Source: Oidiodendron maius Zn (Eukaryota; Ascomycota; Leotiomycetes; Myxotrichaceae). Taken from it: 64,000 bases of DNA. The position numbers and the translations under genes are program-made. Of the stretch, positions 32,645-62,798 are shown piece after piece; position 1 is the first letter of the stretch; each line of letters starts with the position of its first letter. The notes below the pieces were generated by a model. The model was given only the letters and a program-made list of their open reading frames with translations, had not been told where the DNA came from and ran no database searches. The DNA lies in contig KN832880.1 in NCBI GenBank assembly GCA_000827325.1, forward strand, positions 1,158,803 through 1,222,802, read 5' to 3'.

Positions 32645-34374
32645 ATGAACCGGCGAGATCCCACCAAGAGGGCTCTAGCTCCACCTAAAAAGAGAACTTC
32701 TGGCATCAAGGTGAAAACTGGCTGTCAGACCTGCAAGTAAGCAGCCATACGGCACCATGCTGTCTGTTACCTAACCCTGAATTTTGTAGAATTCGTCGTG
32801 TGAAGTGTGACGAGGCTAAACCGGCTTGTCGAAGATGCACTAGTACCGGACGGAAGTGCGACGGTTACGTCGAAGATATCCTTGGCTCCAATTCTCAGGC
32901 CGGCCAGGGTCTTATTCTGTGGAGACTCTCGGCAGCTGTTCCTGGAACCGCCGAAGAAAAACGCTGCTTTAGTTACTATCTGCACAATTCGGCGCCAGAA
33001 TTGTCCGGATACTACGATTCATCACTTTGGGAGAAGCTATTACTCCAGGCCGCAATAGCGGAACCTGCGCTAAGGCACGCCCTGATTGGGATCAGCTCCC
33101 TCCATGAGGCTTTCGCGAATAAGCAGCCAGATAACTCGCTAGATAATGAAAGGGAGAGGTTTGCAGTGGGTCAGTATACTAAGGCCATTGGCTGTCTGAT
33201 ACAGTCGCTGGCTACAGGTGACCAGAAACCGTTAACAGCGTTAATGGCATGTATTCTCTTTGTCTGTTTTGAAAGCCTCCGGGGTCAGTTTACATCGGCG
33301 ATAGTAAGGTTTGAATTACCCGTCCTGAGTGCGGTGCTAACCTTTTGCCAGGTACATTTGCGCAGCGGGCTCAAAATCCTGCGTGATTTTAGGACACAAT
33401 CCGCAGACGATGAATATATTACAGCCAAGAGCTTAGAACCTGCTTTTACAAGACTATGCATCCAGGCAATCTTATACATCGACCAAGCGCCGGTATCAGA
33501 TCGACAAGCGCTCGCTAGCGAAATGACTTACATTGTTGAGCGTGATACCATAGGAGCCTTCACAACGTTGGAAGAAGCGCGCGACTCTCTTAACCAAACT
33601 GTCAAAGGCCTCTTCCGAGTGTTGTATACGTTTGAACCAGACAAGCCTTACAGCGCCTACGCAGAGACATTCCCATCGCACGCCAAATACCGCGAACAAC
33701 TCTCCGACTGGACTAGATCGTTCGAGAGGTTCATGCACACTAACAGTGCGAGATTAAGCAACAAGGGAATCCGCGGGGCTGCAATGTTGAAGGTGCAACA
33801 TATTACCTCCTCCATCATGGCTAACGCCAACCTCCCAGATGCGGATGATCCGCGTCCAGTATCCCAAATTGTGTCTGAAGGAGAAAGATACGTTCCATAT
33901 AATAAGGACTTCGAGAATATAATCGAGCTCTCGAGGTCCCTAATCGCAGCGTTGGAAGAAGACTCCAGGAATGGGAAATCCCCTCTGAACTTCACGGCAG
34001 ATCTGGGTATTATAGCACCGTTATACTATTGCTGTGTTAGATGCCACGATCGCAAACTCCGACTTACGGCAATAGAATTGCTCGGTCGCTGTCCGCGGAA
34101 GGAGGGTATGTGGGAGAGCGCCGCTTTAGTACACCTTATCCGAGGGTACTGGGAAAGAGAAACTTTGCACGAGGCTCTACAGGCTAATGATGGTGGGGAA
34201 CCAGTTCCTTTGAGTGAGTTACTGGACTTGATCCTGCAGGACGGGATGAAGTGGGAGTTCAAGTGGAAAGAAGCGGCATCAAGGACTCAACGTGTTGTCC
34301 CTCTTTACGAATCCGCTGAGTTCGCTGGAGACTGGACCAGAGAATCACTTCAAGATAAGGAGACGAATAACTAG
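32645..34374 (+). CDS. Zn2Cys6 transcription factor, complete
   Basis: Nuclear regulator. Exons 32645-32736, 32790-33303 and 33352-34374 give 542 residues. The first intron (53 bp) splits the zinc cluster. Spliced, residues 27-53 read C-x2-C-x6-C-x5-C-x2-C-x6-C with KIRRVKCDEAKPACRRC at its centre, preceded by a very basic tail (KRALAPPKKRTSG) likely to be a nuclear signal. The second intron (48 bp, GTAAGG..GCTAAC..CAG) keeps frame when unspliced. It was removed because it restores the usual LRGQFTSAI-VHLRSGLKIL of this family; with it retained, 16 extra residues would appear. The rest is the long helical middle region common to C6 regulators. It lies 9.7 kb from the nearest polyketide-cluster gene, with transporter and arrestin genes between, so it is not clearly the cluster regulator. 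Confidence 0.9.
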
Positions 34375-44030: not shown

Positions 44031-45343
44031 CTAGATTACCTTCGCCTCTATCATACTCCTGACGGTATCAGTGACACTAGTTTCTAGATCAATATACTTC
44101 CAGCTTTGTTCCCTGGTTCCCTTGGAGAGAATATCCAGACTTAGTCGCATATCCCACCCAGTTGGATGCACCCCTGGGGGGAGGACCTGTGAAGGGTTTC
44201 CTTCGGGAACCTTGGCTCGCAGGGTAGGAAAATTCTTCCTGATGATATTCACGACCAATTGCGGTGAGATTAAGCCTGAGATTAAGAGAATCCGCTGGCC
44301 ACTAGCACTAGGATTTGTTAAAGCATCAACATGACTTCGGGCCACGTCGCGGACATCCACCTGAGATAATAATTAGATCGAGATTTCACCATAGATTGAA
44401 AGTAACAATAAAGCTTACAAAGTGGTAGAACGGAAACGCTACCCCTTCAATCTGCTGATGGGTTCCGTCAATAAAGCTCGCAATTGCAAAATGATTTGTC
44501 TCATTGATAGACTTGGGGCCGGAAATTGGGTGTATCATTGGTCCAATAATGATATCCGGATTAATAACGGTAAGATCAAACCCAGGTGACTCTGTTTTCA
44601 TAAATTCCCAAGCCGCAGATTCTGCGCGTGTCTTAGAGACGTTGTATCCAAGAACCGTGTCTTTTCGCGCAATAGCTTCCTCAGCAGTGACCTATACCTA
44701 GTAAGTGAGTGAACTTTAATACTCCGAAGGTAGCGGCCATACCGGATTCCAATCTTTCTCAGTATAGGGCCGGCCTTCCCGAGTGATATCCTCAAAGGAG
44801 TTCAAAACGGATACTGCGCTTCCCAATAAGACGAAACGTTTCAGGGTCAACCCACCATAGTGATGGGCGCTTTTGAGAATCTCCGTGGTCCTGCAGAGAA
44901 TGTCAATTCTCTCGTAAGTTATGGGGACATCGCGAAGATTATAATAGCTTACCCTCTCACGGCCGGCTCGATCATTTCCTTTTGAATATCCTTAACTCCA
45001 AAATTCAACGGGGACGCCGTGTGAATTATATGGGTGAAGGGGGCATTCGCATTAATGAACAATTCATCAAACGGTTTCGCAGCGGTGAAATCTGCGACAA
45101 TTACGAATTGTACTTTACCCTCCCATGAGGGATGGGTTTTTATGATGTCGGCTGCTTTTTCTTTTGAGCGCACAGTCGCAGTAACGGCGTATCCCCGCTG
45201 GAGACAGCACTCCCATCAGATATTTGACCCACCAAAAAGGAGAGGCTTTAACTTACATCAAGCAAGATTGACAGTATATGCGAGGCTACAAAGCCGTTCG
45301 CTCCTGTTAATAGGATGTGGAAGCTTCTATCTTGGTTCGCCAT
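44031..45343 (-). CDS. NAD(P)-dependent reductase, extended SDR (dihydroflavonol-reductase-like)
   Basis: A soluble oxidoreductase likely to reduce a carbonyl on a small molecule. Five exons, 45257-45343, 44953-45197, 44743-44890, 44419-44691 and 44031-44360, with introns of 51-62 bp, give 360 residues. The Rossmann motif is at residues 13-19 (TGANGFVASH), followed by GYAVTATVRSKEKA, which sets the cofactor-binding arginine. HTASPLNF lies near residue 88, and the catalytic pair is Tyr176-x3-Lys180 in LGYNVSKTRAE. The C-terminal DVRDVARSHVDAL is typical of the dihydroflavonol/aldehyde reductase (GRE2-like) group. It is the nearest gene upstream of the HR-PKS start region, in the same direction as the PKS and 0.8 kb past its 3' end. 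It could reduce a ketone or aldehyde of the polyketide chain, though the family also works in general metabolism. Confidence 0.88.
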
Positions 45344-46127: not shown

Positions 46128-49100
46128 TCATTCCTCAGCTTTAATATTGTACTTGTCAACTAACTTCCCTTGTACTACAGTGCCTAAAGCCTGTAGGTTG
46201 TCACACCTCGTAATCTCTAGCGTTGCCAATTCGACCCCAATCCACCGCCTTATCCAACTCCTGAGCTCGAGGCTTACTAGCGAGTCGAGGCCAATTGCAG
46301 CCAGCGGTGCTTGAACGTCTACTTCGGCATCTCCTCTCATAATGAATTCTAGGAGCGCCCTACCCATCTCCGTGGCTAAGTAGATAGCTGTTTCAGCAGA
46401 TTGAAGAAGAACTATATTGGAGCGAACCTCACGGACGAAGCGAGCCAGCTCGTTGCTGGATGACCCTGAGCCCGAGACGGAGGACGACTCGAGCTCGTGC
46501 GCCTCAACATTGCGGTAAGCCAGCATGCGCCGGTCCTTGCGCCAGGGGATGCGGCAAGTGCTTGATGTCACCGAGGCGGTCGATCGCATACCCATGGCTA
46601 GCAGAGCTTTCTGTACCAAGCCTCGTGCGAAGTCTCCGTCGCCCAACTTGCGGTCTTGGGAGGGCTTTGATCGAGCCGGCTTCAACATCAACTCAATGCA
46701 GTCCAACAATTCCGCCTCAGTGTTAAACGACTGTCCCATCGCTCGCGCCACATCGGATGCTCCGGCGTTCTCGGCCACAAAGCCCGCATCTTTGATGAAG
46801 CCGACGTTCAGTGCGCTGGCCGCCAGTCCGAGCTGATGGCGGTATGTGGCGAAGGATTCCACAAATGTGTTTCCTGCGTGGTAGTTGGCCTGTCCATGCC
46901 ATCCACCCGTGGCTGCGGTAGAGCTGAACAAGAAAAAGAATTCCAGTGGCATGTTGGATTGCTCGCTCAGAAGCGCATTATGGAGATTCCAGGTTCCTTG
47001 GATTTTGGACTGGGAGGCGGCGAGCCAGTCTTCCCATTTCATGTCCAAGAAGTTGCTGTCCCTTAATATCAGGGATGCTTGCAGAACGCCACCGATTGGT
47101 TTGCCTGCAGTCTTTATTGCTTGAACGACATCGTCGTACTTGGCAACATTTCCAGACACCAGCTTAGCCGTGCATCCTAGCGTGGCGAGCTCGTTCACGA
47201 ATTGGTCGTGGGCTGGTGAAGAGCCGGCAGATCGAGATAGGAACACTATCTCTGTTGCTCCTTTTTCCACAAGCCAGGTGGCAACTGCTCGACCCAGGCC
47301 ACCTAGACCTCCGATGAAGAGGTATGCTCGATCATCACCGAGCTGAAGTGCTTCGTAGACAGGCTCCTCGGCGAGTTCGTGAAGATCTGGCATTGAAACT
47401 ACCAGTTTGCCAATATGCTGGCCCCCTTGCATTCCTCGGAAAGGTTCAGAGATCTGGGAAGCCGAGTACTTGGTGGGCGCCACGACGGGTTTGATATTGC
47501 CCTGCTTCCAGAAATCGACCGCACGCTGTAGAATAGCCCCGGCTACCAGCGGCCGGTGAACCCAGAGGTGCAGCAGTTCGAGGCCGGTGTATGTCCGATT
47601 CGACTCGAACTGCTCCATGGCTAGCTTGCCTTGTCCTATGAAGTCCCTACGACCGATGTCGACAAATGTCCCAAACTCGGCAACGCACTTCCATGATGCA
47701 TGGAGCAGCTCGCCCGAGAGGGAATTGAGCACCACATCCACCCCGCGGTTGTTGGTCGCTGCCATTATAGCAGGCAAGAAAGATGCATCGCGTGAATTGA
47801 AAATATGATCTCTTGGAATGTTGAATTGCGTCATCAGGAAGTCAATTTTCTCTTGATTGCTGACCGTACAGTAAATCTAGTTTGACCTGTCAGATTATTC
47901 ATTCTATAATCAGGGCTGGAAAGCTTAAAGTCGAAAGCAGACGCTGTAGTTTGCAAGCAAGCACTTACTTCGGCTCCTTGTATCATTGCAAGCTGTATAG
48001 CTGCTATGCCCACCCCTCCAGCAGCTGAGTGAATCAGGACAGTCTGAAATTCTCTAATGTCAGTAATAGGTCAATACAGGGAACAGATGGTCTAGTAATT
48101 ACGCACCATGCCACTGGTGAGCCTCCCTCGGTCGATCATACCGTGAATGACGGTGCCATAGGTAACAGGAATGCTGGCCGCTTCTTCGGGACTCATCCCA
48201 TCTGGGATCTCAAAGCATAAGGTTTGGGAGACGACGTGACTGGTTGTGAATGCTCCACAAGTAAGAGCCCCAACGCGGTCCCCAACTTTGAACTTGTCGA
48301 CGCCACGCCCAACCTCTGAGACGACGCCTGCACATTCCAACCCGAGCCCGTCGTCAATGGCTTCTGCGTCGGTGATAATTCCCTGCGCAACGAGAACATC
48401 CTGGAGAAACCCAGATAGTCAGCAACACGCAATATCATAATTGCGAATTCGGGTAATAGGCAACAGAAAAAAACTACTAACCCGGAAATTCATAGCAACA
48501 GCCCTCACTTCAATTCTGACCTCGTCGTCCTTGAGCGCCTTGGCTGTAAGAGGCTTCCAGTAGAGGGAACTCAAAACTCCAGATTTATGCTGTTCCAGCT
48601 TTTTCACCGTCATGCCTGCCGGCAGTGTGTTCCTATGCTCTTGGATCACCTTGACATAAGAATATCGGCTGATGAAAGTTCTTCCATCCACATGGGCCCA
48701 TTCGTGCTCTGGATCAACATCTGGCTCGGAAATACGCTTTTGGAACTGTGCAAACACACTGGGCACGACTTTACTCGCGGCCCCCAAGTCATCGAGCTCG
48801 AGGATTGCAAATTCCAGCTCCAAATCATTACGCAGAACGCGCGAGAGGCCGAGGACCGGCGCATATTCGGGCTTCGTATGACCGATTTGGCAAGATCCCG
48901 TAAGCCAGAAGATGCCGCATGCGCCATCTCTGGCCGCATTAACGAAACGTTGAAAGTTAGAGAACTTGTCCTGATCCAAACTCGAAAAGAAGGGCGCAGA
49001 AAGATCAAGGGCAGAAATCACATCTTGGCCTGGAGGCAGCTTTGCGGCCGGGTCTTCCAGGACAACTTCGTCAAGATGATAGCCGGCTGCTTCAAGTGCC

Positions 49101-52100
49101 GACCGAATAGACCTCACTTCCTGGTCCGCGTGTCGCAGAACTGTCACTCGCTCTGGAGGCTTTGTGGCCGAGGCTGGCTGGCTGATAATGTTGTTGTTCA
49201 TATAGCCGTCATACATCGAGCTCACGCCCTCAAATCCAGCTTTCGCAAGCTCGTCCGTCCAACGCTCGAGAGCTACGTACGGTGCTTGAGTGCGGCCGTC
49301 AGCTTGTCCATACCACCAGCCCGCTAAAACGCCAAAAGTCCCTACCCACATCGTCTGAGGAGAGAGTTCCTGTAAGAGAAGTCGCCCTTCAGGATGTATC
49401 AGCTTCCTCACGTTCGAGAGTGTCTGATGCAGATTCTCTGTGGCATGTAGAACATTGTACGCAATAATGAGATCAAAGCTCTCGGCTGCGAAACCCTGCT
49501 CCAAGGGGTCTTTGGAGATATCGAGCACTGCAAACTCAAGCCCGGAGTACTCCTTAAATCGCTCTTTAGCATCGCTAAAGAAGCCGGCTGATATATCTGT
49601 GTACGTGTAGGACAGATACTTCTTGTCGCCATGTGCAGACTTCAAGATCGGGAGAATAGTAGCCGTCGTGCCACCTGTGCCCGCTCCAATTTCAAGGACT
49701 CGGAGGTTCGGTCTCTTGTGTGAAACCAGGGACAGGAAGCCCGAGAGGTCTGCGTCTTCCAACAGAAAGTCATACACCTTTTGCAGGGCGCCGCCCGCAA
49801 GAAGGATCTCGAGTTCGCTCACAGTCCCATCGAAGATGCCCTCACAGTTATAAGTTACACGATGGAGTGCAGTTGCTGGAGCATATGCTGGGGTTCCCTC
49901 CAACTGACTGTAGATGCTTTCGATCAAGTTGTTTCTTTCTTCGGTCTTCAGAGCGAGGAGATCGACCGCATCAGGAACGCCAAACCAAGTGGAGCGCCCG
50001 GAAGAGACATCATCAATATGGCTATTAATCCACTTGTGAAAATGCTTCAAATGCTCACGGGTTGGTGGTGGTGTACTTCGCAAACGGTTTTGGGCTTCTG
50101 CGAAGCAAAGCAGGCTGAGCCTATCCAAAAGTTGGTATTCCCGTACTTGCGTCTTAATCCCGGTTGGCCGGATGAAGGAAGCTGCATCAACGAGATCGAT
50201 GTCATCCATCCATTCCAGCTCAGCAGCTCCGTGTGGGTTCTTGCCATCATCAGCCTCGTCGACAAGGCAAGACATTTGCCAGCCTTTGGACCTCACGACA
50301 ACTTGACCGCCATCTTCAAGTGAAAGAGCAACGACGTCGCCAAGGAATCCATTCGGTCTCTGCTCTGTAACCTCCGCTAAGACCTTCAACTCCTCTGTCA
50401 CTACTCGTGGAGGACGCAGATAGAACTCATCGATATATGTGATAACAGCGGGCTTGGCGAAATTCCTCGTTAGCCCGCGCGCGACGGCTGGAAATAGGCT
50501 CTGAGGCACCCCATCCAATGCCCCTGGAAAGATAGGGTAATATTTCTCTTCCCCTGGGCGTAGGCCAACCTTGATTGATGCTGCCAGCTTATCATTTAAT
50601 GGGTCCGCAGTTATGTCCTTGAGCGGAGTGAACCGAGGGCCATATTCCAAGCCTAGCGAGCGGAATTTGCGGTACCATGACTTAGATGAACACGCCCTGG
50701 TATAGCTTCTCGTGGCGGCCTCCTTTGCGCTCAGGTCTTGTAGCTCGAACTCATCACCTCCGCCACGAACTTGGCCAAAGGCGTGCTTGATCCAGCTCTC
50801 GTTCTTATAACTTGAGATGCTGAAGTCGTACCATTCTGAGTCGAGAGCATTGGTTAAGTTAACTCGGCTTAGCTGTGTGATAACCTCAGTCTCATCCTCG
50901 CCGTTTAAGACCAAGGCTACCTTCATGTGGATCTTCTGACAAGTGAAGTCGGCCTTGCCTGTGAGTTGTCGAATAGCCTCGCCGGCCATGTACAGGTACG
51001 AGACGCCTGGGAGGACGACGTCACCCTGAATCTCGTGCTCTTTGATCCAAGGCACGTCCTCGAGGCGCAGAACGTTTCGCCATCCAGGATTAAAGACCGT
51101 GCTCTCTAGAATTCTACTCCCGAGAAGTTCGTGATGGGGAAATTCGCGCAGGCGATATTCCTTTGCTAGCCTAGACTCGTGCCAAAGTGGTTCTTCGTAG
51201 TGCCATGGATATAGAGGGAGGTCCGTTAAGAAAGTGCCTCTACCGACGGCTTGCTCTAAATTAACTGGATAGTTCTGTAGCTGGAGCTGGCCGACAGCCC
51301 GAAGAACCTCTTCATATGCGTCCTTACCACGAGTGAGGACGCTGACGTACTCGTCGCTGGAGTTCTCTGCTTTGAGAATTTGGCGGATGGGTCCGGCTAG
51401 AGTAGAGTGTGGACCAATCTCCAGAAAAATCTTCTTGGACGTGGAGAAGTTGATGGCCATGCTCATGGCGGTGGAGAATTTCACAGGAGAAACTAGATTT
51501 TGAACCCAGTACGAAGGACCAAGCTCAGCTCCTTGGTTGATGACTTGATTTGTCACGCTCGAAATAAATGGTACTGATGGATCACGAGGGTTGAGATGAC
51601 AGCTCATGAGGTCGAGATATTGATTCGCGAGTGACTCCATGTGGTCTGACCAAGTATTACGATAGTCAGCAAAGGCATGAAGAGTTTTAAGGAGAGGGAT
51701 AGAACATGGTCAGGTAAACTCACGAGAGTGGTAGGCTCTGTCTACCTGCAAAGCTCTGGCAAGGACGTCTGGGTTCTCCGACTTGATTTTCTGTATGATT
51801 GCCTCAAGGGTGGATTTATCGCCAGTTAGGGTGACACTGTTAGGGCTATTCTCGCAACCCACGAGAACGCCGGGTAGAAGATATGGTAGGACTTGCTCCG
51901 TCCCTAAGCCTATAGCTGCCATGCCGCCAATAGACGGGTCAACGTCAAGTAAAACCTTGCCACGGTAGTAGGCGATGATGATCGCCTCTTTCAGAGTAAT
52001 TGCACCAGAGGCATAAGCTGCTGCGATCTCACCAGATGAGTGACCAGTCGCGGCCTCCGGCGTAATGTTGTAGGTTTTAAGTAGGTCGACGAGTGCTACT

Positions 52101-54033
52101 TGGAGCGCCGTACAACATGGCTGTGAAAGCTCTGCATCCAAAATGCGTGATGTTTTCTTTGGTGCAAGCAGTTGGTCTGTTTCCTATGTCAGTCATAACC
52201 GGGTGCAACTGCCCAAAAAGTGGCTAATATACCTTTCAATTTCCATTTTGGACCATCACCCAGCGATTGTAATACCATGTCCATCTCTTCAATGGTCTCT
52301 CTAAATGATTGGATACTTTTTATCAGAGCTTTGCCCATCTGTGCCCACTGCGCTCCCTGCCCGCTGAAGACAAAAGTCAACTTGCCAGAATCATATGATC
52401 CGTGGCGAGTCGAGAAAAAAGGAGTCCAGTCATCTATGCCGTTAGCCACGCAGAATGCACGGTGGCTGAGCGTCTCCCTCTTCATTGCGAGAGTATATGC
52501 CATATCCAACAAAGAATTTCTGTTGCCCATATAGTAGGCCTGATGACCAGTAATCATTTTTTCTAATGCTTCAGGATGTTTAGCAGAGAATAGGAGGAGC
52601 TTTGGAGTAAAGGATCTAGTGTCATCTGTCAAAGAATCCATATCTCTTTCCCCTACAACCCCAACATAGTCGGCCGATGCGAGGAGAGCATGCGAGTTGG
52701 ATCCGCCGATTCCGAATGAGCTGACGCCTACAACCCGATCTTTCCCTTCTGGCCATCGTGTGGGCTCGACCGCGACTTTTAATTGACACGCATCCCATGG
52801 AATCTTAGGGTTGGGTTTTGCAAAGTTGAGGTTTGGGGGGATAATACCAGTCTCAAGAGCGAGAACCATCTTTATCAGCCCGGCAAGACCAGCAGCGCCT
52901 TCGACGTGGCCGATATTAGTCTTGACCGAGCCGATATAGATTCCACCGCAGTCGCCAAAGACATTAGCAACTGACTCTGCCTCGAGAGGATCACCGACAG
53001 CGGTTCCTGTTCCGTGACATTCAACCATGGCTGTCTTTGAAAAGTCTTTAATGTTAGCAAGTTCATGAGTCCTCCGAATTAGCTCAGCTTGCTCTACAGG
53101 ATTTGGAGCGGTGAGGGTCGATGATTTCCCATCCGCGCCGATGGCTGTTGAAAGGACGACAGAGCGGATTGTATCCCCATCTCGGACTGCGTCGCTGAGC
53201 TTCTTGACGTATATGGCCAACACAGCCTCACCTCGTGCAAAGCCGTCGGCATCCGCACTGAATGTCTTGCTGAGTCCCGAGTTGGAAAGAACGCCGTGCT
53301 CATTAAATGCGACCGTCAAGCTCGGTGAGTAGATTATGCTAGTTCCAGCGACCACTGCCGCTTCGCAGTCGCCATTGTACAGAGCTTGACAGGCTTGGTG
53401 GAGCCCAGTAAGTGACGAGCTGCATGCCGTGCGAATTGTAACACTTGGTCCAGTAAGATTGAATTCATAGTTAATTCTATTGGCCAATACAAAGTCGAAG
53501 GCGTTGGTCAAATCGTAGGGATGACGAGTTTGTGTATCGCGGGAGTCGAGTTCCTGTCTGTCCCCACCGAAACTACATGCCCAAACCCCGATTTTGCGTC
53601 CCCTGAGGTCGGAGGGCTTTTGGCCGGCGTTTTGGAATGTCTCATAAACAACTTCAAGAGCCAAGCGTTGCTGCGGGTCCATGATCTCGATCTCCTTCTT
53701 AGTCATAGACCAAAATGATGTATCCATGTTGCGGAGATCGAGATTATTGAGGAAATAACCGTATCTGCTAGGAACATGCCCATCCTTGTCTGGATGGTAC
53801 CAACTGTCAACATTGTAACGATCCTTCGGGACTGAGCAACGCCCATGGCGCTTGTTGATCAGCATGTCCCAGAAGCTCTGGGCATCTGTCACTCCTCCAG
53901 GCAGGCGAAGACCCATGCCACAGATAGCAATAGGTTCTACGTGAGGCTTTACCCCATTGACCTTGGAAATGCCATTGGTTTTGATTACATTAACTCTATG
54001 AGTCGAATGTGCTCTATTCTGATCAGAGGTCAT
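46128..54033 (-). CDS. Highly reducing polyketide synthase (KS-AT-DH-MT-ER-KR-ACP)
   Basis: Iterative type I enzyme that builds a reduced carbon chain from malonyl-CoA. Six exons (52233-54033, 51724-52176, 48482-51645, 48107-48400, 47969-48043, 46128-47876) give 2511 residues and close in frame. KS has its active Cys at about 204 (TACSSSL), with [11 protein letters not shown] and [12 protein letters not shown] has [10 protein letters not shown], Ser at about 647, and YHSHHM after splicing, the fungal malonyl form. DH has [10 protein letters not shown] at about 955 and its Asp near 1129 (LDGVPQ). C-MT has LEIGAGTGG at about 1402, an intact SAM motif. ER has HSAAGGVG near 1912. KR has GGLGGLG near 2120 and NYHAGN. 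ACP Ser is near 2461 (GLDSL). Nothing follows the ACP: no thioesterase, reductase or carnitine-transferase domain, so release needs a partner. The type III PKS nearby is the obvious candidate. Confidence 0.96.
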
Positions 54034-54786
54034 TGTAAAGGTATCTTAACCGGGAAGAGAAAACAGAATAAAAGTCATTTGAGGGCACATGTAGTTTCCA
54101 AGAGAGACTGTGGGTTGAAGGAGCAAGTTAGTTGTGGTAGGAGAGAACCACCTGGCTACTGCACTCTTGTGCTTATGCAAGTCTTATTTATATGCGATTT
54201 CAGCTCTGAAAATAGCTCTATCACGGAGCAGCTGAGCCTGCAACGACTTCAATGCTGGCCAAGTTCTGTATGAAAAATACGAACCTGGCTCCTGGATGCA
54301 TGTGTTGGTCTATGAGGCAGGCAAATAGCTCAAAGCCTACCTGGGATGATATGCACGTCCTAGGCTTTAGTGTGAGTATAAAATTTTGTTGGTATTTATA
54401 ATTTGCAATCCCCGTACAGGGACTGAAGATAGGCCACGGTCTTTATTCTCACGCTACTACCTATAAGGTAATAGGTAACCCTCATACTAGAAGACTATAT
54501 TAACCTTGCCAAGAATGCCTGTCAGCAGACTTGCCTATAATTGGCCGTCCGGATAAATATAGCTCCTGAAAAAGCAAATCCGTTTTGCCAGATGCCACGT
54601 AATGAGTTAAATCAGGGATACTGCCCATGTAACCAAAACAGACAGCTAGTGGGAAGCCGATATGCTAGATTATGCGTAGATCTTCTCGCAATCCCATTAC
54701 TTTCTTACTACTTCTAACATAAGGGCTGTAATTCCAAACCACACTGATTCTGCACTGTCCTCACTTTTATGATGATGCTTCTCAAT
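54034..54786. other. HR-PKS promoter region
   Basis: About 750 bases between the HR-PKS start and the end of the small membrane protein gene. It holds the TATA-like box listed at 54185 and no gene. Confidence 0.5.
54185..54192 (-). promoter_or_regulatory. TATA-like box of the HR-PKS gene
   Basis: On the minus strand this reads TATAAATA, 152 bases before the ATG at 54033. Position fits a fungal core promoter. Confidence 0.4.
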
Positions 54787-55206
54787 TTACAGCAGTCCAT
54801 ACAAGCCAGCGGAAAGTAAACTTAGAAAGATAATGCAATGGCCCCTAAAATTCCCTTTCGGACCACCCCCGACATCATACTCCGACTTGTAACCGCTTCC
54901 TGCAAGTTTCCGCCTCTCCATCCTGTCCCAAGCCCTATGCATGGGGAAAATGTGATACACCAGTAAAGACCAAGTAAGCGCAGTGCCTACTTCATCGAAG
55001 TTCCTTACACCGTTCAAGAACAGGTACATGGAGCACACGGTGTTGAGAGAGAGAAGCGTCCCAGCGTAGCTTTGGCATATCAGAACAGCCTCCCGGCTTG
55101 GAGTTGGCTCGTGAAGCTGGATGTGAGGCTGCCTGAGGAAGGACATAATCGCCCAGAACTCGATGATAAAGTGCATAATGATCGGGATGTTGGCAATATG
55201 CAGCAT
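54787..55206 (-). CDS. Unrecognised four-helix membrane protein in the polyketide cluster
   Basis: Single exon, 139 residues, start ATG at 55206. Hydrophobic segments lie at about 3-22 (HIANIPIIMHFIIEFWAIMS), 38-60, 72-92 and 121-139, so three or four membrane helices with little else. Charged loops carry HEPTPSREA after the first helix and a basic DRMERRKLAGSG before the last, followed by a Gly-rich YDVGGGPKGN. No signal sequence cleavage is expected. I do not recognise the family by name. It shares direction with the HR-PKS and lies between it and the flavin monooxygenase, so it is probably part of the cluster. Membrane enzymes of similar size (cyclases, isomerases) occur in other fungal clusters, and such a role is as likely as transport. 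No catalytic residue can be assigned. Confidence 0.6.
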   Translation of the reverse strand: MLHIANIPIIMHFIIEFWAIMSFLRQPHIQLHEPTPSREAVLICQSYAGTLLSLNTVCSMYLFLNGVRNFDEVGTALTWSLLVYHIFPMHRAWDRMERRKLAGSGYKSEYDVGGGPKGNFRGHCIIFLSLLSAGLYGLL

Positions 55207-55840
55207 CTTGCCGGTCGATGGCGGCTCAAGCGGAGAGTATCAGTGTGAAAGAAAGGGTGGGTGATAAAAAGTTCGCAAGTATGTGGTCTGACAACACTTA
55301 AGCTGTGCTTTGAATAGCGGGCTGGGTGTGATTGATCTCTGCAATATAAGTGGAACGTAGCCAGCAATGGGGAGTTCGGCACTATTATGGGCATTCGTCT
55401 CGCTGCAGCAAAAATCCATGTTGGAAAGAAGATCTGCTAGTTATTAATGCATGCGCTATAGCCAATATTGGGGCGTTGCATGCTGTGTCTCGGGGTTCGT
55501 TATACCCCCCGCGGACCCCAACTCATAGACAGACACTCCACAGCTTGCCAAGGATGTATGCGCTGACCTAATTAGCTTGTGAAAGGTAATTTATAAATTC
55601 ACCTGGGTGGTCTTTCGAGCTCGGAACCTGAACTGTGAGTATTACGTGAAAATTTAGGAATACGGCATCCATCTGGACCTGATAAATAGTCTGAACAGAG
55701 TATCCGTCCAGTATTGTGTCAACTATATATTATCTACGCCATAATTAACCTAGGCATTCATCCTTCCAACAAGCGGCCTATAATCTCTACAATCGACTCG
55801 CTTAGCATGATAGTATAGCACATGTCAAATCGACAACACG
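55207..55840. promoter_or_regulatory. Divergent promoter of membrane protein and FAD monooxygenase
   Basis: 634 bases separate two genes read outward, suggesting shared control. A TATATATTA tract lies about 110 bases before the monooxygenase ATG. Several CGG/CCG triplets are present near 55210-55235, possible Zn2Cys6 half sites, but none forms a clean palindrome. Confidence 0.4.
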
Positions 55841-57419
55841 ATGCGAGACGATCAAAGCCTATCTATCAAGGGTCTCCATGCCATAATTATTGGTGCTGGT
55901 TTTGGCGGGCTATCATCCGCTATCGAGCTGGCGCGACTAGGAGCCACTGTCCAAGTATTCGAATCATCTACGGATTTGAGTAAACAAGGTGAGATCTCAA
56001 AAACTCCAACAAAGATGCGCAAGAAAGTATCATTTATTCATGTATCAATATCAGGTGATGTTATCCGATTCGAAGCCAATGCATCCAGGGTAATGCAACC
56101 ATGGGGCAATGTGCTAGACGAGGCTGTAAGAGCAGCGTCGCCATTGGATAACTTGACGATCCTAGACAAAGGAGGGAGAGTGTTTTTGGAACAGCCGTTG
56201 GAAACAGTATTCGAAGGGTATCCCAACGTCTATGTTAATCGAGGCCACGTCCAGCGGTTAATGCTCGATTATGCTGTCTCTCTAGGTATTGAAGTGAACC
56301 TGGGAGCGCGGGTTACTCGAGTTTTCGAGACTGACGTCTCGGCGGGGGTGCAGATCGACGACAAGTTGCATGAAGCCGATTGCGTGATTGCCGGGGATGG
56401 CGTCCGGAGTACGGCTAGAGCCTTGGTCACCGGATTGACCGATCGCCCTAAGAAGAGCGGCTACGCCATATACCGAACATGGTTTCCGCTAGAGGTACTC
56501 CGAGGGGATAGTGTAGTGGAAGGTATTGCAAAAAGTAAGCGGCCGATATGCAAGATTTGGATTGCTCCAGAGGCCCACGCTATCCTTACTACAAATGTCA
56601 ATATGCAGGCTGGAACTTGCTTCCTGACGCACAAGGCGGGTCACTTATCATTTCGTACACGAATCAACCTGCAATTGGACACTTCTAACTCGAATCCATC
56701 TGCAGGACTTATCAGACATGCACGAGGATTGGAATCAGCGCGGCAACATTCAAGACATGCTAGCCGATGTTGAAGGGTGGGATCCTGAACTTCTCCATAT
56801 CATCCAACATATTCCACCCGATAGTCTCATCGATTTTAAGATGCTCTGGCGAGATCCCGTCAAAAAGTGGGTATCGGAAAAGGGACGTATCTGCCTGGTT
56901 GGCGACGCCGCCCACCCGCATCTTCCTACCGCCGGCACAGGGGCGGCGCAAGCCTTCGAGGATGCCGCCACAATCGGAACCTTGATGCAGAAATCTATGG
57001 AAAAATCGGGTAATGCCCCGGATATTCCCGTTGTATTTGGGGCTTACGAGAGACTAAGGTAAGAGATCCAGCCGCATGATTAGACCCTATCAGTGATTGG
57101 TAGTAGATATGAACGTACGAGTTTGACACAACGCATGGGTTGGGAAACTCGACATATATGGCACCAGACAGACTGGGATGCTGTTGCGAAGGATCCCAAC
57201 TATCTAAAAATGCCGCAGCCTGCATGGTTGCTGGGACATGATGCGAGAAACTATGCAAAGGAAAACTTCGAGGCAGTCATCCATCATTTGCAGGAGGGAA
57301 CGCCATTTACGTCAAAGAACGTGCCGGAAGGCCACGTACATGAAGAATGGACAGTCGAAATGTTACTCGCAAATGAAGGACAGGTCGTGGATGAGAACTT
57401 CTACAAGGTGAGAGATTGA
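55841..57419 (+). CDS. FAD-dependent monooxygenase, salicylate-hydroxylase-like
   Basis: Group A flavoprotein hydroxylase using NAD(P)H and O2 on an aromatic ring. Exons 55841-55988, 56055-56654, 56716-57058 and 57107-57419 give 467 residues. It has the dinucleotide motif IIGAGFGG near residue 16, the DG motif CVIAGDGVRS, and the FAD-ribityl motif GDAAHPHLPTAGTGAAQAFED. The C-terminal LTQRMGWETRHIWHQTDWD is typical of the salicylate hydroxylase/FAD-binding-3 group in fungal clusters. The second intron has two possible donors, 56640 and 56655, both keeping frame; 56655 was taken for its better GTA start and the CTAAC branch at 56686. Enzymes of this kind hydroxylate phenols, and salicylate-type members do so with loss of the ring carboxylate, which would suit an alkylresorcylic acid from the type III PKS. 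The substrate is inference. Confidence 0.9.
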
Positions 57420-58508
57420 TAACTAGGTTGAAAGAGCGGAGAGGCGTATCCTACAACTAAACTATTCCATCCTCGGTTGCGAATTATCTTAACTGACAAG
57501 ATATTTTCTGTCCAAACAACACCATTCCCTAGACGTGATAATCACGGTGAAAACGACCGACTTTGCTGCTGAACCTGCAGCTTACGTACAGTACAGTAGT
57601 CTTACTTTTGGCAATGAGTGATAATGCCGATAACACGCAGGGGTCGACAAAGTAGTGGAACGTTATGATGGCCAAGTGCCTAGGTTCTTGAATAACAGCA
57701 CTCTTTCGGAAACGTGCCGTACCTTGGCTACAGCTAAAGGATTTGTGGTAGGGGGATGGCCATTGCACGAGCTTTTTTGAAACTGTGCCCCAATATCCGA
57801 ATACGACGACAGTCGGCACAACTAGGATTGGGCACTCTTTTGAAAAAAACTGCAGGCGGACAGCATCATTACCCCGGCCATATGCACAAGAGTATAACAA
57901 AAGTAACTCAGTGGCATGGTAAAACGGGTAAACAATGTGTCGACACGACACCCTGTGTCACATACCAAGAAAGGACTAAGAAATATATAAGCTTCGGACT
58001 TGTGTTCTGCATCAAGTAGCCCGGCCGTCGTGCCGCGCCCGCGCCGCACGGATAATGTTCATGGTTGCAGGATGTCAGACGTGCAGCAGAGCGCTTGGTT
58101 GCGAAGTTGCGGGGTTATTAGTGCAACGCAAGTTTATCATGGATATTATCACTAGAAGGAAGTGTGACACCTATACGCTAAAGATATCAAGTGTATCAAA
58201 GAGCTGTGTGCATATCTGCCGAAACTAAAAGGCACTGCCACAGCTGGGTTGACTGATATGCTTCTGCCCTTATACCTGATTGGATCGTACTACCTGACTA
58301 CATAATAATTTATGACAATTCTATTGGTTATGTGCTGTTATCATTTAAACAACGATGGTTGGTCATCAGATGCGTGGACGATAAAATATCCAATTTCTAT
58401 CAAAGTTGTGGCCGAATTTGATGTCACGTTTTTTTACGTTGATTCTGATCGTCCTTACCGTATCTAAAAAGGAGATCATCTATACGGTGTAGTAACCCTG
58501 TCGTGATA
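57420..58508. other. Convergent intergenic region
   Basis: About 1.1 kb between the ends of the monooxygenase and type III PKS genes. Overlapping open frames at 57529-58049 occur on both strands and have no domain. A short GC-rich patch is at 58017-58050. Confidence 0.45.
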
Positions 58509-59756
58509 TCAGTTATCGCGGCATCGTCTAAGGATAGCCATCTCAGTTGCCAAACCAGGTCCAAACGCTACAGCAACAACGTCATCTTTTCCCTGTCCCA
58601 TTTTCCTCAATATATCCAACACACATAGTACTGTTGGGCTTCCGCTATTTCCTCTCGTCTTGTAGATCTGTCGAGTGGCCCTCATCTGCTCTTCCGTCAG
58701 ATCCAGCTCTTCCTTGACGCTGTCAATGATAGCTATTCCACCGGGATGTAATGCAAAGTCAAGGTCACGTATGCTGAGGTCATGTTGGCCAGTCTTCTCC
58801 CGGTACCGACCGAAGCACCGATCAAAGAGAGGCGGGACCGATTTCTTCGTAAGATCAGGGACCTGTTTACTAATGATGCTCGTGTAGCCTGTGGGTCTGA
58901 TCACGGCACCCATATTGTGCACAGTTCCTGGAGTGACGGTACGTTCCCAGTCGATCAACTGGAACTTGGCCTGGTCCTCGTCATCCAGTCCATACTTATT
59001 GCACAAGATAAAGGCGGCTGCCCCATCACTGAAGAGAGACCCAGCAATGTCCATATTCTCCTCGTCGGTGGACGCTTCTGCCTCAGCATAAAAGTGCCTT
59101 GAGTACGGGGTGTTCAGTTCGCAAGAGAAACACAAGATTCGCGCAGGCTTCTTAAGGAGCTCGGCAGCCAATGCGACTTCTGCCGCCACACGCATGACAC
59201 TCATGCTCCCCGCACAACCCACACCCTGTAGTAAGATCTGCTCGACATCGTAACTGAGGCCGAGCTGACGGGCCACATGAAAGTCGTAACCTGGAAAAGT
59301 CTGGACGCCGCCATTGACGGAGACAGTGTGCGTGATGTCTTCGGCAGCATCGCCACCCCATTCACGCAAAGCCTTCCGACACGCTTGAGCGGCCACATCA
59401 ACGCCGTGTTTGCGGAAAAAGCTATCTAGGTCAGCGATACTTGGAATCTCTTGCTGGCAGCAGAATCCGGTTTCCAAGTTCAACGTGGATGCACGAGTAT
59501 CAATGCCGCTGTTGTGAACAAGCCTAAGCAGCTTATTCAGACTAGCATGCGTTTTGTTAGCGGATTCATTAATTATTAGACTCACTTACACTGGTTTCTC
59601 AGTATCATGGAACCTCTTAGCTAGATTGCTAAATTTTTCAGGGGTATGCAAGTAGGGAGGATACTGAGAACCTAATCCAGTGATCCAAAGCTCTGGGCAT
59701 AGTGAGGGCAATGTTGCCGTCTTGGTTCCACCGTTTATTGCGCCGATTGATCCCAT
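58509..59756 (-). CDS. Type III polyketide synthase
   Basis: Homodimeric chalcone-synthase-fold enzyme that extends an acyl starter with malonyl-CoA and cyclises it, without an ACP of its own. Two exons, 59590-59756 and 58509-59541, with a 48-bp intron (59542-59589), give 399 residues, the family length. The catalytic triad is complete: Cys165 in QGVGCAGS, His321 in FALHPGG and Asn354 in TRGNSGSPT. The C-terminal loop [10 protein letters not shown] matches the conserved GFGPG element with Ala for the first Gly. Known fungal members make alkylresorcinols, resorcylic acids and pyrones from long acyl starters. Lying about 4.5 kb from a highly reducing PKS that lacks a release domain, it most likely takes that chain as starter. 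It is divergent from the O-methyltransferase gene across 1.6 kb. Confidence 0.95.
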
Positions 59757-61384
59757 TGCAGCGTATTCATTTAGATTCTAGACTGAGACGGCCGGTTATG
59801 AAACTTGAGTAACCAAGGAACCCCTATCATTTTACAGTCGTCTAGTAGTTTAAAAGATAAGAAGTTAACCCCCACCCATCAGATAAGGTAAAATCGCCGT
59901 ATGGCATGCATTTACTTCATGCACTACCTAGGTGGCTAAATACAACTATGTGGTAAGATTACTCTGATAAGCCTCCTTAGAAAACCATAGGGCAGAAGAA
60001 AAATATGTGCAGTTATTGTACGAAATACGATGAATGCCTTGCAGGCAATTAGTGCTCACCGAGTTGCCCTGCGTTAGTTAGAGGAGCTTCTGCACATGAC
60101 ATGTTGCGCAGCTGAGGTAGAAAGCGGAAATAATGCGGCGAATTTCATTCCCTGCACGGTTAGATAAGGTATCATTCTCCGTGTTACGGGGAGGAACTTC
60201 TGCATATGCAGTGTCAGGCATGGTTGGTAGAAAGCAGAGAAAATGCCGAGGGCTACAGTCCCTGTACGCGAAAATGGGTCTCCCCAAAATGGTAATTTTT
60301 ATATTGTAGCGATTATTAAATAATGTCGAATAAAGTATTGGGACTAGCAAGTAGCAAATATAACTAAAGGTCTCTGCGTATCAGCATGCCTGCATGGATA
60401 TGTGCTCTCCCTGTCTGGTTACCACCTTCCAACCACCGCCGGAAGTATTGTTCCCTGGATTAGTTGTTACGTACTGGATACCTAGAAGTATGAAGAGATG
60501 CTGGGGGAGTGGCCGAGCACCTCTCCATAGGTTTGATACATACTGTATCTCCATCTATATACGTTATATGGTTGCAGCGTTGCGGAGTCATTAGTAATTA
60601 TAACTGGATGGCGTGAGTGAGAAAGGGACGAGAGGTTGGTCTCAAATTGAACTAGTCATACGCTCTCGCATTAATCATTCTTAGTATAGTTGTAGATATG
60701 ATAACGGATAATATAGATAACTACTCTTTCAGTCGAAGGAAGTGCGAAATTAGTCACAAGCTTGATGTCTACTAATTTTAGTGTCTTGGGTCGGCAAAGG
60801 GAGGAGTGAGCCAAGTTTACCTTTCAAGTTGCTTCGCTATTCTACATCTTCGTAAGTGGTAGCACAGTGGGCAAATCTAGAAGTACCTGGTATTTAGTGT
60901 GGTTTGTTAGAAGGTATAAGTAAAATTACTCGATAAGAGAGAATGGTATTATACTAGTCGTTAGTTGAACCAGCCATGACCAGGGTAAATCCACCATACT
61001 CCATATAGTAGAAGAGGGTATAACTAAAAAAAACCTTCGACCTTTTAGCCACTGTACCCTGTGACAATAGCCGCATTCGTAGGCACAAGAGCATTCTTCG
61101 CCTCTTACTTTAAAGGGTATATCTATTCCTCGATTACCTAGTTAGCGTAGCCTCTAATAATGTGCAATCAACCAGATCCCGGCTGGGTTGAAGCACGCTC
61201 ACTTTACAACTTGGCTGAAGTACACCTTCAAGCTTTTTCTCCTCGTCTTTATCTTTAGATATTCTCCTGCCAAAACCCTCCAAAACATACTCCTACATCA
61301 AACTGAACTTCGTCTCCGCCATCTGTAGAACTTGAGCATTAGCTGTTTGTCTTTTAATTGCTTATTTCGGCTTTCCTTGTCAAA
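59757..61384. other. Divergent region between type III PKS and O-methyltransferase
   Basis: 1.6 kb holding both promoters. A CGGCCG palindrome at 59789-59794, 33 bases before the PKS start codon, could be a Zn2Cys6 site. An imperfect duplication of about 110 bases lies at 60081-60271. No gene was seen. Confidence 0.5.
60081..60271 (+). repeat. Imperfect direct duplication, period 110 bp
   Basis: The stretch beginning GAGGAGCTTCTGCACATG at 60081 recurs as GAGGAACTTCTGCATATG at 60191, and both copies go on through GGTAGAAAGC and a TCCCTGnACG. The copies differ at roughly a quarter of positions, many of them C/T or G/A. Confidence 0.6.
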
Positions 61385-62798
61385 ATGGACGCGCTTATTG
61401 CTCAAGTAAAAGCTCTTGCTAACACAGCCGATGAGGCCGACCACAAAAAGCTACTTGAAACTCTTCGTGGCCTCTTATACTCTCTTGAAACACCCCAGGA
61501 CTCGGCTAATAGAATTATGTACCTTGTACAAACTTATCCTAACTTCTTTGCCTTATTGCTTTGCACTAACATCTCAGCAGTATATGCAGGTTGCAGTAGT
61601 TCGTATTGGTTGCGACCTTCAGCTATTCAATATGCTTGTCGAGAATCCAAATCCAATGACTATTGACAGTCTGTCGCAAAAGACTGGTGCAGCGCCAACA
61701 CTTTTGGGTAAGTATTTATATTAAAAATCGACCTGTACTATGAACAAAGCTAACAACAGTAATGTACAGGCCGTATCTTGCGTTACCTGGCTTCAATTGG
61801 TTGCATCAAGGAGACAGATCAGGACACCTTTACTAAGAACAATGTTACTGAGGCACTCGCAATTCCTGGATTCCAAGGTGGCATATATCACAAGTAAGTA
61901 TACAATTTTTATTATAATATGGTATTAATTTTAACAAATTGCAGCTTTGACACTCTGGGCCCTCCTATCCAAGCCCTCCCTGACTTCTTGAAAGAACACA
62001 AATATCAAGATATTTCAAATGTCCTTGACGGTCCACTCCAAAAGGCCTGGAATACAGACTTGCCATCTTTTATGTGGATTCAAACCAAGCCAGAGAATTT
62101 TGCTAATTTCAATCAATATATGGCTGTCCAACGCCTCGGCATGCCTACTTGGCTTGATGTCTATCCATGGCAAGCAAAAGCAAAGGGTCTAAAGCTCGAT
62201 CAGACCCTTTTTGTTGATCTCGGCGGCGGAATTGGACATCAGAGTCTTGCTTTAAGAGAGAAGTTGCCCGAATTGCCTAACAAGATCATTTTGCAAGATA
62301 TACCTGTAACTTTGCGTCATGCTATCAAGCACCCGGGCATCGAGGTTATTGCACATGACTTCTTTCAGCCACAAGTTATAACAGGTGAGATCATTTCTTG
62401 TACTACAATCCTCTTGCCTAAATTCACAGAGAAACAAACAGAACAGAGTACAGCAATACTAATATATACTGCTTTCCTTAGGAGCAAGAATATATTACAT
62501 GCGCAACATTATGCACGACTACCCTGATGACAAAGCTATAATTATATTAAAGAATACAGCCGCAGCACTTGGTCCAGACTCTGTTATCTTGATAGATGAC
62601 ATGATTATTCCTAACACTGGTGCCCACTGGGAAGCAACTCAGCTTGACATGACTATGTTAACTGGAGCAAGTGCAGCAGAGAGGACGAGGGACCAATGGT
62701 TTGCTCTTGCGGAAAAAGCAGAACTGAAGATCAATAAGATCTACCAATACACGGCTAGTCTACACGATAGTATTATAGAGTGCGTAGCTTTAAGATAA
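61385..62798 (+). CDS. SAM-dependent O-methyltransferase
   Basis: Transfers a methyl group to a phenol oxygen. Five exons, 61385-61525, 61581-61707, 61770-61893, 61945-62384 and 62482-62798, with introns of 51-97 bp, give 382 residues. An N-terminal winged-helix dimerisation region (AVVRIGCDLQLFNML, then TLLGRILRYLASIGCI after splicing) is followed by the SAM-binding motif VDLGGGIGHQ at 221-230. KIILQDIP and the catalytic His289 in YMRNIMHDYPDDKA come next, the layout of fungal class II O-methyltransferases of aromatic polyketides. The C-terminal LTGASAAERTRDQW is also typical. It is divergent from the type III PKS, so it probably methylates the ring made by that enzyme or after hydroxylation by the flavoprotein. 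Confidence 0.93.

What the first reader, a model, noticed from the sequence alone, without database searches (positions are those of the whole stretch)
46128..62798. Highly reducing PKS paired with a type III PKS in one cluster
The window shows a complete HR-PKS and a complete type III PKS within 4.5 kb, plus flavoprotein hydroxylase, O-methyltransferase, reductase and a small membrane protein. Most fungal type III PKS genes stand apart from type I PKS genes. A known precedent, recalled as the soppiline alkylresorcinol pathway of Penicillium soppi (HR-PKS PspA with type III PKS PspB), suggests the HR-PKS makes the starter for the type III enzyme. Tailoring by a salicylate-hydroxylase-like enzyme, an O-methyltransferase and a four-helix protein is a set I do not recognise, so the product may be new.
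Basis: partly seen in the sequence, partly recalled or inferred. Interest (0 to 1): 0.88.

Follow-up and report, generated by a model that had tools for sequence, protein, structure and literature searches.

The report
Paired polyketide synthases in a fungus
A root-associated fungus carries close together two different kinds of polyketide-making enzyme that very probably work in sequence, a pairing already described in other fungi, here with a different and still untested set of finishing genes.

Summary
The genes are real. In Oidiodendron maius Zn the region holds a complete highly reducing PKS (2511 aa, no release domain seen) and a complete type III PKS (399 aa, triad intact), 4.5 kb apart. 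Near them lie a group A flavin monooxygenase, a helical-bundle membrane-type protein of no known family, an OMT-fold protein and, outside the given coordinates, a reductase. The pairing is not new: PMC6985275 (2020) described two fungal type III PKS clades ancestrally linked to a reducing PKS, with P. soppii PspA/PspB as the worked example. This pair belongs to that lineage: its type III PKS groups with PspB, ten other genomes appear to carry both genes on one contig, and the two enzymes co-diverge (r = 0.97, 13 pairs, 0 of 5000 shuffles). Starter hand-over from HR-PKS to type III PKS is therefore the likely mechanism, inferred and not shown. What differs from the soppiline cluster is the tailoring set; membership is least sure for the OMT-fold protein (nearest solved relative LepI) and the reductase. 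New member of a known kind.

The parts
46128..54033 (-). HR-PKS, KS-AT-DH-cMT-ER-KR-ACP, 2511 aa; exons 54033-52233, 52176-51724, 51645-48482, 48400-48107, 48043-47969, 47876-46128
   Evidence: model; Pfam; relatives to 61%; motifs
58509..59756 (-). type III PKS, 399 aa; exons 59756-59590, 59541-58509; triad Cys165, His321, Asn354
   Evidence: identical to OIDMADRAFT_43477
54787..55206 (-). small membrane-type protein, 139 aa, predicted helical bundle, no Pfam family
55841..57419 (+). group A flavin monooxygenase, about 464 aa; preferred exons 55841-55988, 56055-56635, 56706-57058, 57107-57419; the second junction is unsettled
61385..62798 (+). OMT-fold protein, 382 aa, nearest solved relative LepI; His289 at the usual place of the OMT base; cluster membership uncertain
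44031..45343 (-). extended-SDR type reductase, 360 aa, five exons; 785 bp beyond the HR-PKS stop; membership uncertain
56636..56705 (+). preferred 70-nt GC-AG intron of the monooxygenase gene; GT-AG alternatives 56640-56715 and 56655-56715

Best explanation
A biosynthetic gene cluster of the PspA/PspB kind. The HR-PKS builds a reduced, possibly alpha-methylated acyl chain and, having no release domain, leaves it on its carrier protein. The type III PKS takes this chain as starter, adds malonyl units and closes a ring (alkylresorcinol, resorcylic acid or pyrone), thereby also releasing the chain. The flavin monooxygenase then hydroxylates the ring, if need be with loss of a carboxyl group; the OMT-fold protein would methylate a phenol. 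The net set (type III PKS, hydroxylase, methyltransferase) would work like bacterial srsABC, with an HR-PKS product in place of a fatty acyl starter. Shown here: gene models, domains, catalytic residues, co-occurrence in hit tables and co-divergence of the two PKSs. Inferred: starter transfer, ring type, order and substrates of tailoring, role of the small protein and of the reductase.
For: Both PKSs complete. The type III PKS is the only PF00195 match in the genome and falls in one well supported group (100/99) with PspB and 9 of the 10 paired rows of the tree. Ten genomes show relatives of both enzymes with the same longest-contig length, four of them with consecutive locus tags. Distances of the two enzymes agree: r = 0.971 over 13 pairs, 0 of 5000 permutations; 0.966 over the 11 without two pairs matched only by species or genus, and 0.887 over 8 thinned pairs, 0 of 5000 each. 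Both enzymes of Colletotrichum jinshuiense are nearest to Podospora (82% and 80%) and not to the other Colletotrichum pairs, so the pair behaves as a unit against the species tree (the Podospora pair is one of the two matched by genus only). PMC6985275 reports the same kind of agreement for clades 7 and 8 and, citing Kaneko et al. 2019, that PspA feeds PspB.
Against: The two PKS genes are not consecutive here; two genes lie between them and they share a strand, while PMC6985275 describes next-door genes often in opposite directions. No P450 heme motif was found in the window or the next 20 kb (no positive control), though P450s are common at such loci. PspA was not among the listed HR-PKS relatives (120 of 7144 listed, 8000 candidates scored). 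One of the ten paired tree rows, Xylographa, falls outside the PspB group. Several close type III PKSs, such as Hyaloscypha finlandica (70%), have no partner among the listed HR-PKS rows. No expression or product data.
Confidence: 0.78

Rival explanations
1. Two independent pathways that happen to be neighbours: the type III PKS makes alkylresorcinols or pyrones from fatty acyl-CoA, the HR-PKS makes its own product.
For: Characterised fungal type III PKSs outside this lineage use fatty acyl starters (PMC6985275, passages); the genome has about 51 KS loci, so a chance neighbour is not absurd (1.3%); two genes lie between.
Against: Both enzymes appear together and co-diverge in other fungi; the type III PKS groups with PspB, whose HR-PKS starter is reported.
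Confidence: 0.12
2. Core of four genes only (HR-PKS, small protein, monooxygenase, type III PKS); the OMT-fold gene and the reductase are neighbours without a part in the pathway. This narrows the best explanation rather than excluding it.
For: The OMT-fold gene starts 1629 bp beyond the type III PKS start and has GC3 0.415 against 0.490-0.614 in the other five genes; the stretch between holds a 152-bp piece with an 80% copy on another contig; neither gene was seen with the pair elsewhere, though this was not searched for separately.
Against: OMT-fold and reductase functions fit such pathways; spacing under 2 kb is normal inside fungal clusters (established knowledge).
Confidence: 0.45
3. The cluster is decaying: the monooxygenase gene has lost a splice donor and no longer makes a working enzyme.
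For: The junction that aligns best with solved relatives is a GC-AG intron.
Against: GC-AG introns are spliced at low frequency in fungi (established knowledge). Two GT-AG junctions also keep the frame and cost only 3 to 10 bits against the three best relatives. The other five gene models are open.
Confidence: 0.05

Closest known systems
Soppiline cluster of Penicillium soppii (pspA, pspB, pspC)
   Same: HR-PKS near a type III PKS; type III PKS 48% identical to PspB (P0050) and in the same well supported group
   Different: soppiline tailoring is a P450 (PMC6985275; the gene name pspC is recalled); here no P450 motif was found but a flavin monooxygenase, a small membrane-type protein and an OMT-fold protein; the type III PKS sits in another branch with Hyaloscypha, Leptodophora and Colletotrichum; closeness of the HR-PKS to PspA not tested
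[quoted passage not shown]
   Same: linkage and co-divergence with a reducing PKS, mosaic spread over fungal classes
   Different: PKS genes not consecutive here; which of the two clades could not be decided, as figures and supplements were not available
srsABC of Streptomyces griseus
   Same: type III PKS with a methyltransferase and a hydroxylase or monooxygenase that modify alkylresorcinols (passages of PMC6669644 and PMC8086630; that SrsC is a flavoprotein is recalled)
   Different: bacterial, acyl-CoA starter, isoprenylcysteine-type methyltransferase; an analogy of function, no homology claimed or tested
LepI, SAM-dependent pericyclase of leporin biosynthesis
   Same: nearest solved relative of the OMT-fold protein (E 2.1e-86); LepI His133, Arg197, Asp296 are kept as His130, Arg194, Asp290
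   Different: LepI Arg295 is His289 here, the position of the catalytic base in ordinary O-methyltransferases (recalled), so methyl transfer is the likelier activity
MAK1-like monooxygenase (7cp6), FAD monooxygenase 6pvf, CtdE (7kpq)
   Same: end-to-end similarity to the flavin monooxygenase (E 3e-72 to 5e-62)
   Different: they belong to other pathways (recalled); decarboxylative vanillate and 4-hydroxybenzoate enzymes come next (147 and 141 bits), salicylate monooxygenases lower (70-101 bits)

Membership tests
Linked HR-PKS / type III PKS pair (PspA/PspB lineage) | complete HR-PKS gene and complete type III PKS gene at one locus | tested here: met
   4476 bp apart
Linked HR-PKS / type III PKS pair (PspA/PspB lineage) | type III PKS groups with PspB and other paired type III PKSs | tested here: met
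   36-row group of 46 rows, support 100/99, holds PspB and 9 of 10 paired rows; Xylographa lies outside
Linked HR-PKS / type III PKS pair (PspA/PspB lineage) | the two enzymes co-diverge | tested here: met
   r 0.971, 0.966, 0.887, each 0 of 5000 permutations
Linked HR-PKS / type III PKS pair (PspA/PspB lineage) | HR-PKS groups with PspA | tested here: inconclusive
   PspA not among the 120 rows listed of 7144, and only 8000 candidates were scored
Linked HR-PKS / type III PKS pair (PspA/PspB lineage) | usual but not defining: the two PKS genes are consecutive, often in opposite directions | tested here: not met
   two genes between them, same strand; consecutive locus tags in 4 other genomes
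Linked HR-PKS / type III PKS pair (PspA/PspB lineage) | usual but not defining: a P450 gene at the locus | tested here: not met
   no heme motif in six frames of the window and 20 kb downstream; no positive control, and an intron inside the motif would hide it
Linked HR-PKS / type III PKS pair (PspA/PspB lineage) | HR-PKS product serves as starter of the type III PKS | not testable with these tools
   needs expression and product analysis
LepI pericyclase (for the OMT-fold protein) | catalytic Arg295 | tested here: not met
   His289 in its place (roles from passages of PMC6533283)
LepI pericyclase (for the OMT-fold protein) | His133, Arg197, Asp296 | tested here: met
   His130, Arg194, Asp290 by alignment
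Salicylate hydroxylase (for the flavin monooxygenase) | closest to salicylate 1-hydroxylases among solved relatives | tested here: not met
   7cp6, 6pvf, 7kpq score 213-247 bits; salicylate monooxygenases 4bk1 and 6bz5 101 and 70 bits

The most novel reading that the evidence does not exclude
The OMT-fold protein is a SAM-dependent ring-closing enzyme of the LepI lineage rather than a methyltransferase, acting on a quinone-methide-like species that the monooxygenase and the reductase make from the HR-PKS/type III PKS phenol, with the small helical-bundle protein as a new enzyme family of this branch of the pairs. That would be a pericyclic step in a pathway of mixed type I and type III PKS origin, of which I know no other case (recalled, not searched).
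Probability: 0.05. Interest if true: 0.65.

Novelty: new member of a known kind. Interest (0 to 1): 0.36.

Why it matters
It adds a cluster from an ericoid mycorrhizal fungus (lifestyle recalled) to a described but thinly characterised class: in PMC6985275 (2020) the soppiline cluster is the only fungal type III PKS cluster characterised as such. Its tailoring set differs from the soppiline one, so it is a reasonable target for finding a new phenolic lipid and for testing how a type III PKS takes over a chain from an HR-PKS without a release domain. The small helical-bundle protein, with 41 invariant columns over eleven sequences and no family, is the least explained part.

Tried and rejected

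Monooxygenase junction: one search printed 21 one-intron and 58 two-intron GT-AG models (the latter filtered to at least one GTA or GTG donor). I first read these as all spoiling the alignment; on checking, that was wrong. Two GT-AG models cost little: 56640-56715 scores 244.0, 207.8, 206.5 bits against 7cp6, 6pvf, 7kpq and 56655-56715 scores 241.3, 205.0, 204.6, against 247.0, 214.6, 213.3 for the GC-AG model. GC-AG is preferred, not proven; against 8gsm the first GT-AG model is even slightly better (141.4 against 140.6). The other models were not scored.

Considered clade 7 against clade 8: not decided. Considered LepI-type activity: kept only as the novel case. Searched print for this cluster or its like. 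One search listed 15 of 22 papers holding both Oidiodendron maius and polyketide synthase; none was opened for this. I saw no description of the cluster in these listings; the main text of PMC6985275 does not name Oidiodendron, but its supplements, not available here, may list the locus. PMC12443245 (passages) ties Stemphylium alkylresorcinols to a lone type III PKS and has no bearing on the pair. The search for Aspergillus thesauricus, source of the best PDB match 9hrb, gave two papers without bearing by title.
Full report
What was checked. The window lies on contig C11 of a 45.9 Mb genome in 58 contigs. Its type III PKS is identical to OIDMADRAFT_43477, so the organism is Oidiodendron maius Zn, an ericoid mycorrhizal fungus (recalled).

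The two synthases. Stop-to-stop frames and splice sites give an HR-PKS of 2511 aa in six exons, 54033 to 46128 on the minus strand, and a type III PKS of 399 aa in two exons, 59756 to 58509, minus strand. Pfam finds KS, AT, DH, methyltransferase, ER, KR and carrier domains in the three large HR-PKS stretches submitted. Active-site motifs are in place: KS Cys/His/His, [10 protein letters not shown] HxxxGxxxxP, methyltransferase [25 protein letters not shown], carrier GLDSL. About fifty residues follow the carrier motif, too few for a release domain. The type III PKS has both chalcone-synthase-type domains and Cys165, His321, Asn354. Its best solved relatives are the Aspergillus thesauricus enzyme 9hrb, then 3euq, 3e1h and 3euo (Neurospora ORAS, name recalled) and CsyB (3wxz, 3wy0, 3wxy). 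It is the only PF00195 match in the genome.

The pairing elsewhere. The protein searches listed 120 of 379 type III PKS matches and 120 of 7144 HR-PKS matches. Among these rows ten genomes show relatives of both enzymes with the same longest-contig length: Colletotrichum sojae, C. truncatum, C. spaethianum, C. jinshuiense, Oculimacula yallundae, Lophiotrema nucula, Rhypophila sp. PSN 637, R. decipiens, Xylographa soralifera and Chaetothyriales sp. CBS 135597. In four (C. jinshuiense, O. yallundae, X. soralifera, CBS 135597) the locus tags are consecutive. This is read from tables, not from DNA. Some close type III PKSs, for example Hyaloscypha finlandica (70%), show no partner in the listed rows; the lists are cut, so this is not evidence of absence. 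The O. maius HR-PKS itself was not listed as a deposited protein; its best match is 61% (Cadophora sp. M221).

Co-divergence. Over 13 pairs (O. maius, the ten above, and two matched only by species or genus, C. tofieldiae and Podospora) the distances of the two enzymes correlate at r = 0.971, with 0 of 5000 permutations as high. Without the two guessed pairs r = 0.966 over 11, and over 8 thinned pairs r = 0.887, again 0 of 5000. Permutation does not remove shared species history, but C. jinshuiense speaks to it: both of its enzymes are nearest to Podospora (82% and 80%) and not to the other Colletotrichum pairs. The O. maius pair is likewise nearer to the other four Colletotrichum pairs (62-63% and 59-61%) than to the leotiomycete Oculimacula (50% and 54%) (its class is recalled). 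The pair thus travels or persists as a unit.

Place in the tree. In a tree of 46 type III PKSs that I chose from the 120 listed (the C. spaethianum row was not among them), O. maius is sister to Hyaloscypha (100/99) inside a group with Leptodophora and Colletotrichum (100/100). A larger group of 36 rows (100/99) holds PspB and nine of the ten rows counted as paired; Xylographa lies outside. The root is drawn at the midpoint only. PspB is in another branch, with Aspergillus hancockii and Penicillium, and is 48% identical to the O. maius enzyme.

What is already in print. Navarro-Munoz and Collemare 2020, PMC6985275 (abstract, sections 13, 14, 15, the first part of 16 and passages read), found 522 type III PKSs in 1,193 fungal genomes. 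[quoted passage not shown] two clades, 7 and 8, show ancestral linkage and the same topology for both PKSs. PspB is in clade 8, and they report from Kaneko et al. 2019 (not seen by me) that PspA supplies the starter to PspB. They note FAD-binding PF01494 domains at type III PKS loci in seven clades.

The tailoring genes. The flavin monooxygenase (55841-57419) aligns end to end with fungal group A monooxygenases: 7cp6 MAK1-like (E 3e-72), 6pvf and 7kpq CtdE, then decarboxylative vanillate and 4-hydroxybenzoate enzymes, with salicylate monooxygenases lower. One junction is unsettled. A 70-nt intron GC...CAG at 56636-56705 gives an alignment without a gap there and the best scores against the three nearest relatives; the GT-AG introns 56640-56715 and 56655-56715 cost 3 to 10 bits.

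The OMT-fold protein (61385-62798) has Methyltransf_2 and Dimerisation domains. Its nearest solved relative is LepI (294 bits), ahead of MpaG' (156 bits). LepI is a SAM-dependent pericyclase whose catalysis rests on His133, Arg197 and Arg295, with Asp296 (PMC6533283, passages). The alignment gives His130, Arg194, His289 and Asp290. The one change is to the histidine that ordinary O-methyltransferases use as base (recalled), so I read it as a methyltransferase of the stock out of which LepI arose. Its GC3 is 0.415, against 0.490 to 0.614 in the other five genes, and it starts 1629 bp from the type III PKS start. Its best long match elsewhere in the genome is 32% identical, and a match split by exons on contig C13 reaches 50% over 103 residues. 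Its membership is open.

The small protein (55206-54787) has ten relatives at 60-88% identity, one in a named genome, Diaporthe helianthi, the rest without an organism name, and no paralogue found in its own genome. The closest relative, P0241, and a type III PKS fragment 88% identical to ours, P0016, both have a longest contig of 5858 bases, which suggests that the two genes are neighbours there too. Of 41 invariant columns, His12, Glu16, His32, Glu39, His85, Asp94 and His123 stand out. The model is a helical bundle (pLDDT 86.5) without an informative match. None of the ten relatives is named Colletotrichum, although that genus has close PKS pairs; small genes are often missed in annotation.

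The reductase (45343-44031) is an open extended-SDR model, 785 bp beyond the HR-PKS stop. At and past the window edge lie a short-chain dehydrogenase, a Zn2Cys6 regulator and a sugar-type transporter. No P450 heme motif was found in the window or in the next 20 kb (without a positive control).

Reading. The best-supported account is an HR-PKS that hands its chain to the type III PKS, followed by ring hydroxylation and perhaps methylation. The nearest functional analogue outside fungi that I found is srsABC of Streptomyces griseus, where a methyltransferase and a hydroxylase modify type III PKS alkylresorcinols (passages of PMC6669644, and PMC8086630). The hand-over rests on co-divergence and on the PspA/PspB precedent; ring type and tailoring order are inference.

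Changes made on checking. I had written that no GT-AG intron restores the monooxygenase alignment; searches show two that nearly do, so the odds of the 'decaying cluster' rival went from 0.12 to 0.05.

Verdict. Observation confirmed; interpretation partly supported; new member of a known kind. The tailoring set, above all the family-less small protein, keeps it of moderate interest.

Noticed in passing
window 56636-56715: Unsettled splice junction in the flavin monooxygenase gene: a GC-AG intron aligns best, two GT-AG introns nearly as well.
   Followed up: partly
window 61385-62798: OMT-fold protein whose nearest solved relative is the pericyclase LepI, with histidine in place of LepI Arg295, and with lower GC3 than the other five genes.
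   Followed up: yes
L002 183-755 (+), 1103-2965 (-), 4941-6615 (-); at and past the window end: Short-chain dehydrogenase, Zn2Cys6 regulator and sugar-type transporter downstream of the OMT-fold gene; could extend the cluster.
   Followed up: partly
window 60523-60674: A 152-bp stretch between type III PKS and OMT-fold gene has an 80% copy on contig C21, position 90615-90766.
   Followed up: no
P0016 and P0241: A type III PKS fragment and a small-protein relative from unnamed sources, both 88% identical, share a longest contig of 5858 bases, hinting at a conserved neighbourhood.
   Followed up: no
P0014, Colletotrichum spaethianum: A type III PKS deposited under the name 'putative polyol transporter 1', probably a wrong or fused annotation.
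   Followed up: no
window 23730-25619 (-), 29823-30155 (-), 32689-34374 (+): ABC transporter, GH71 fragment and a Zn2Cys6 regulator lie upstream of the cluster; no sign that they belong to it.
   Followed up: no
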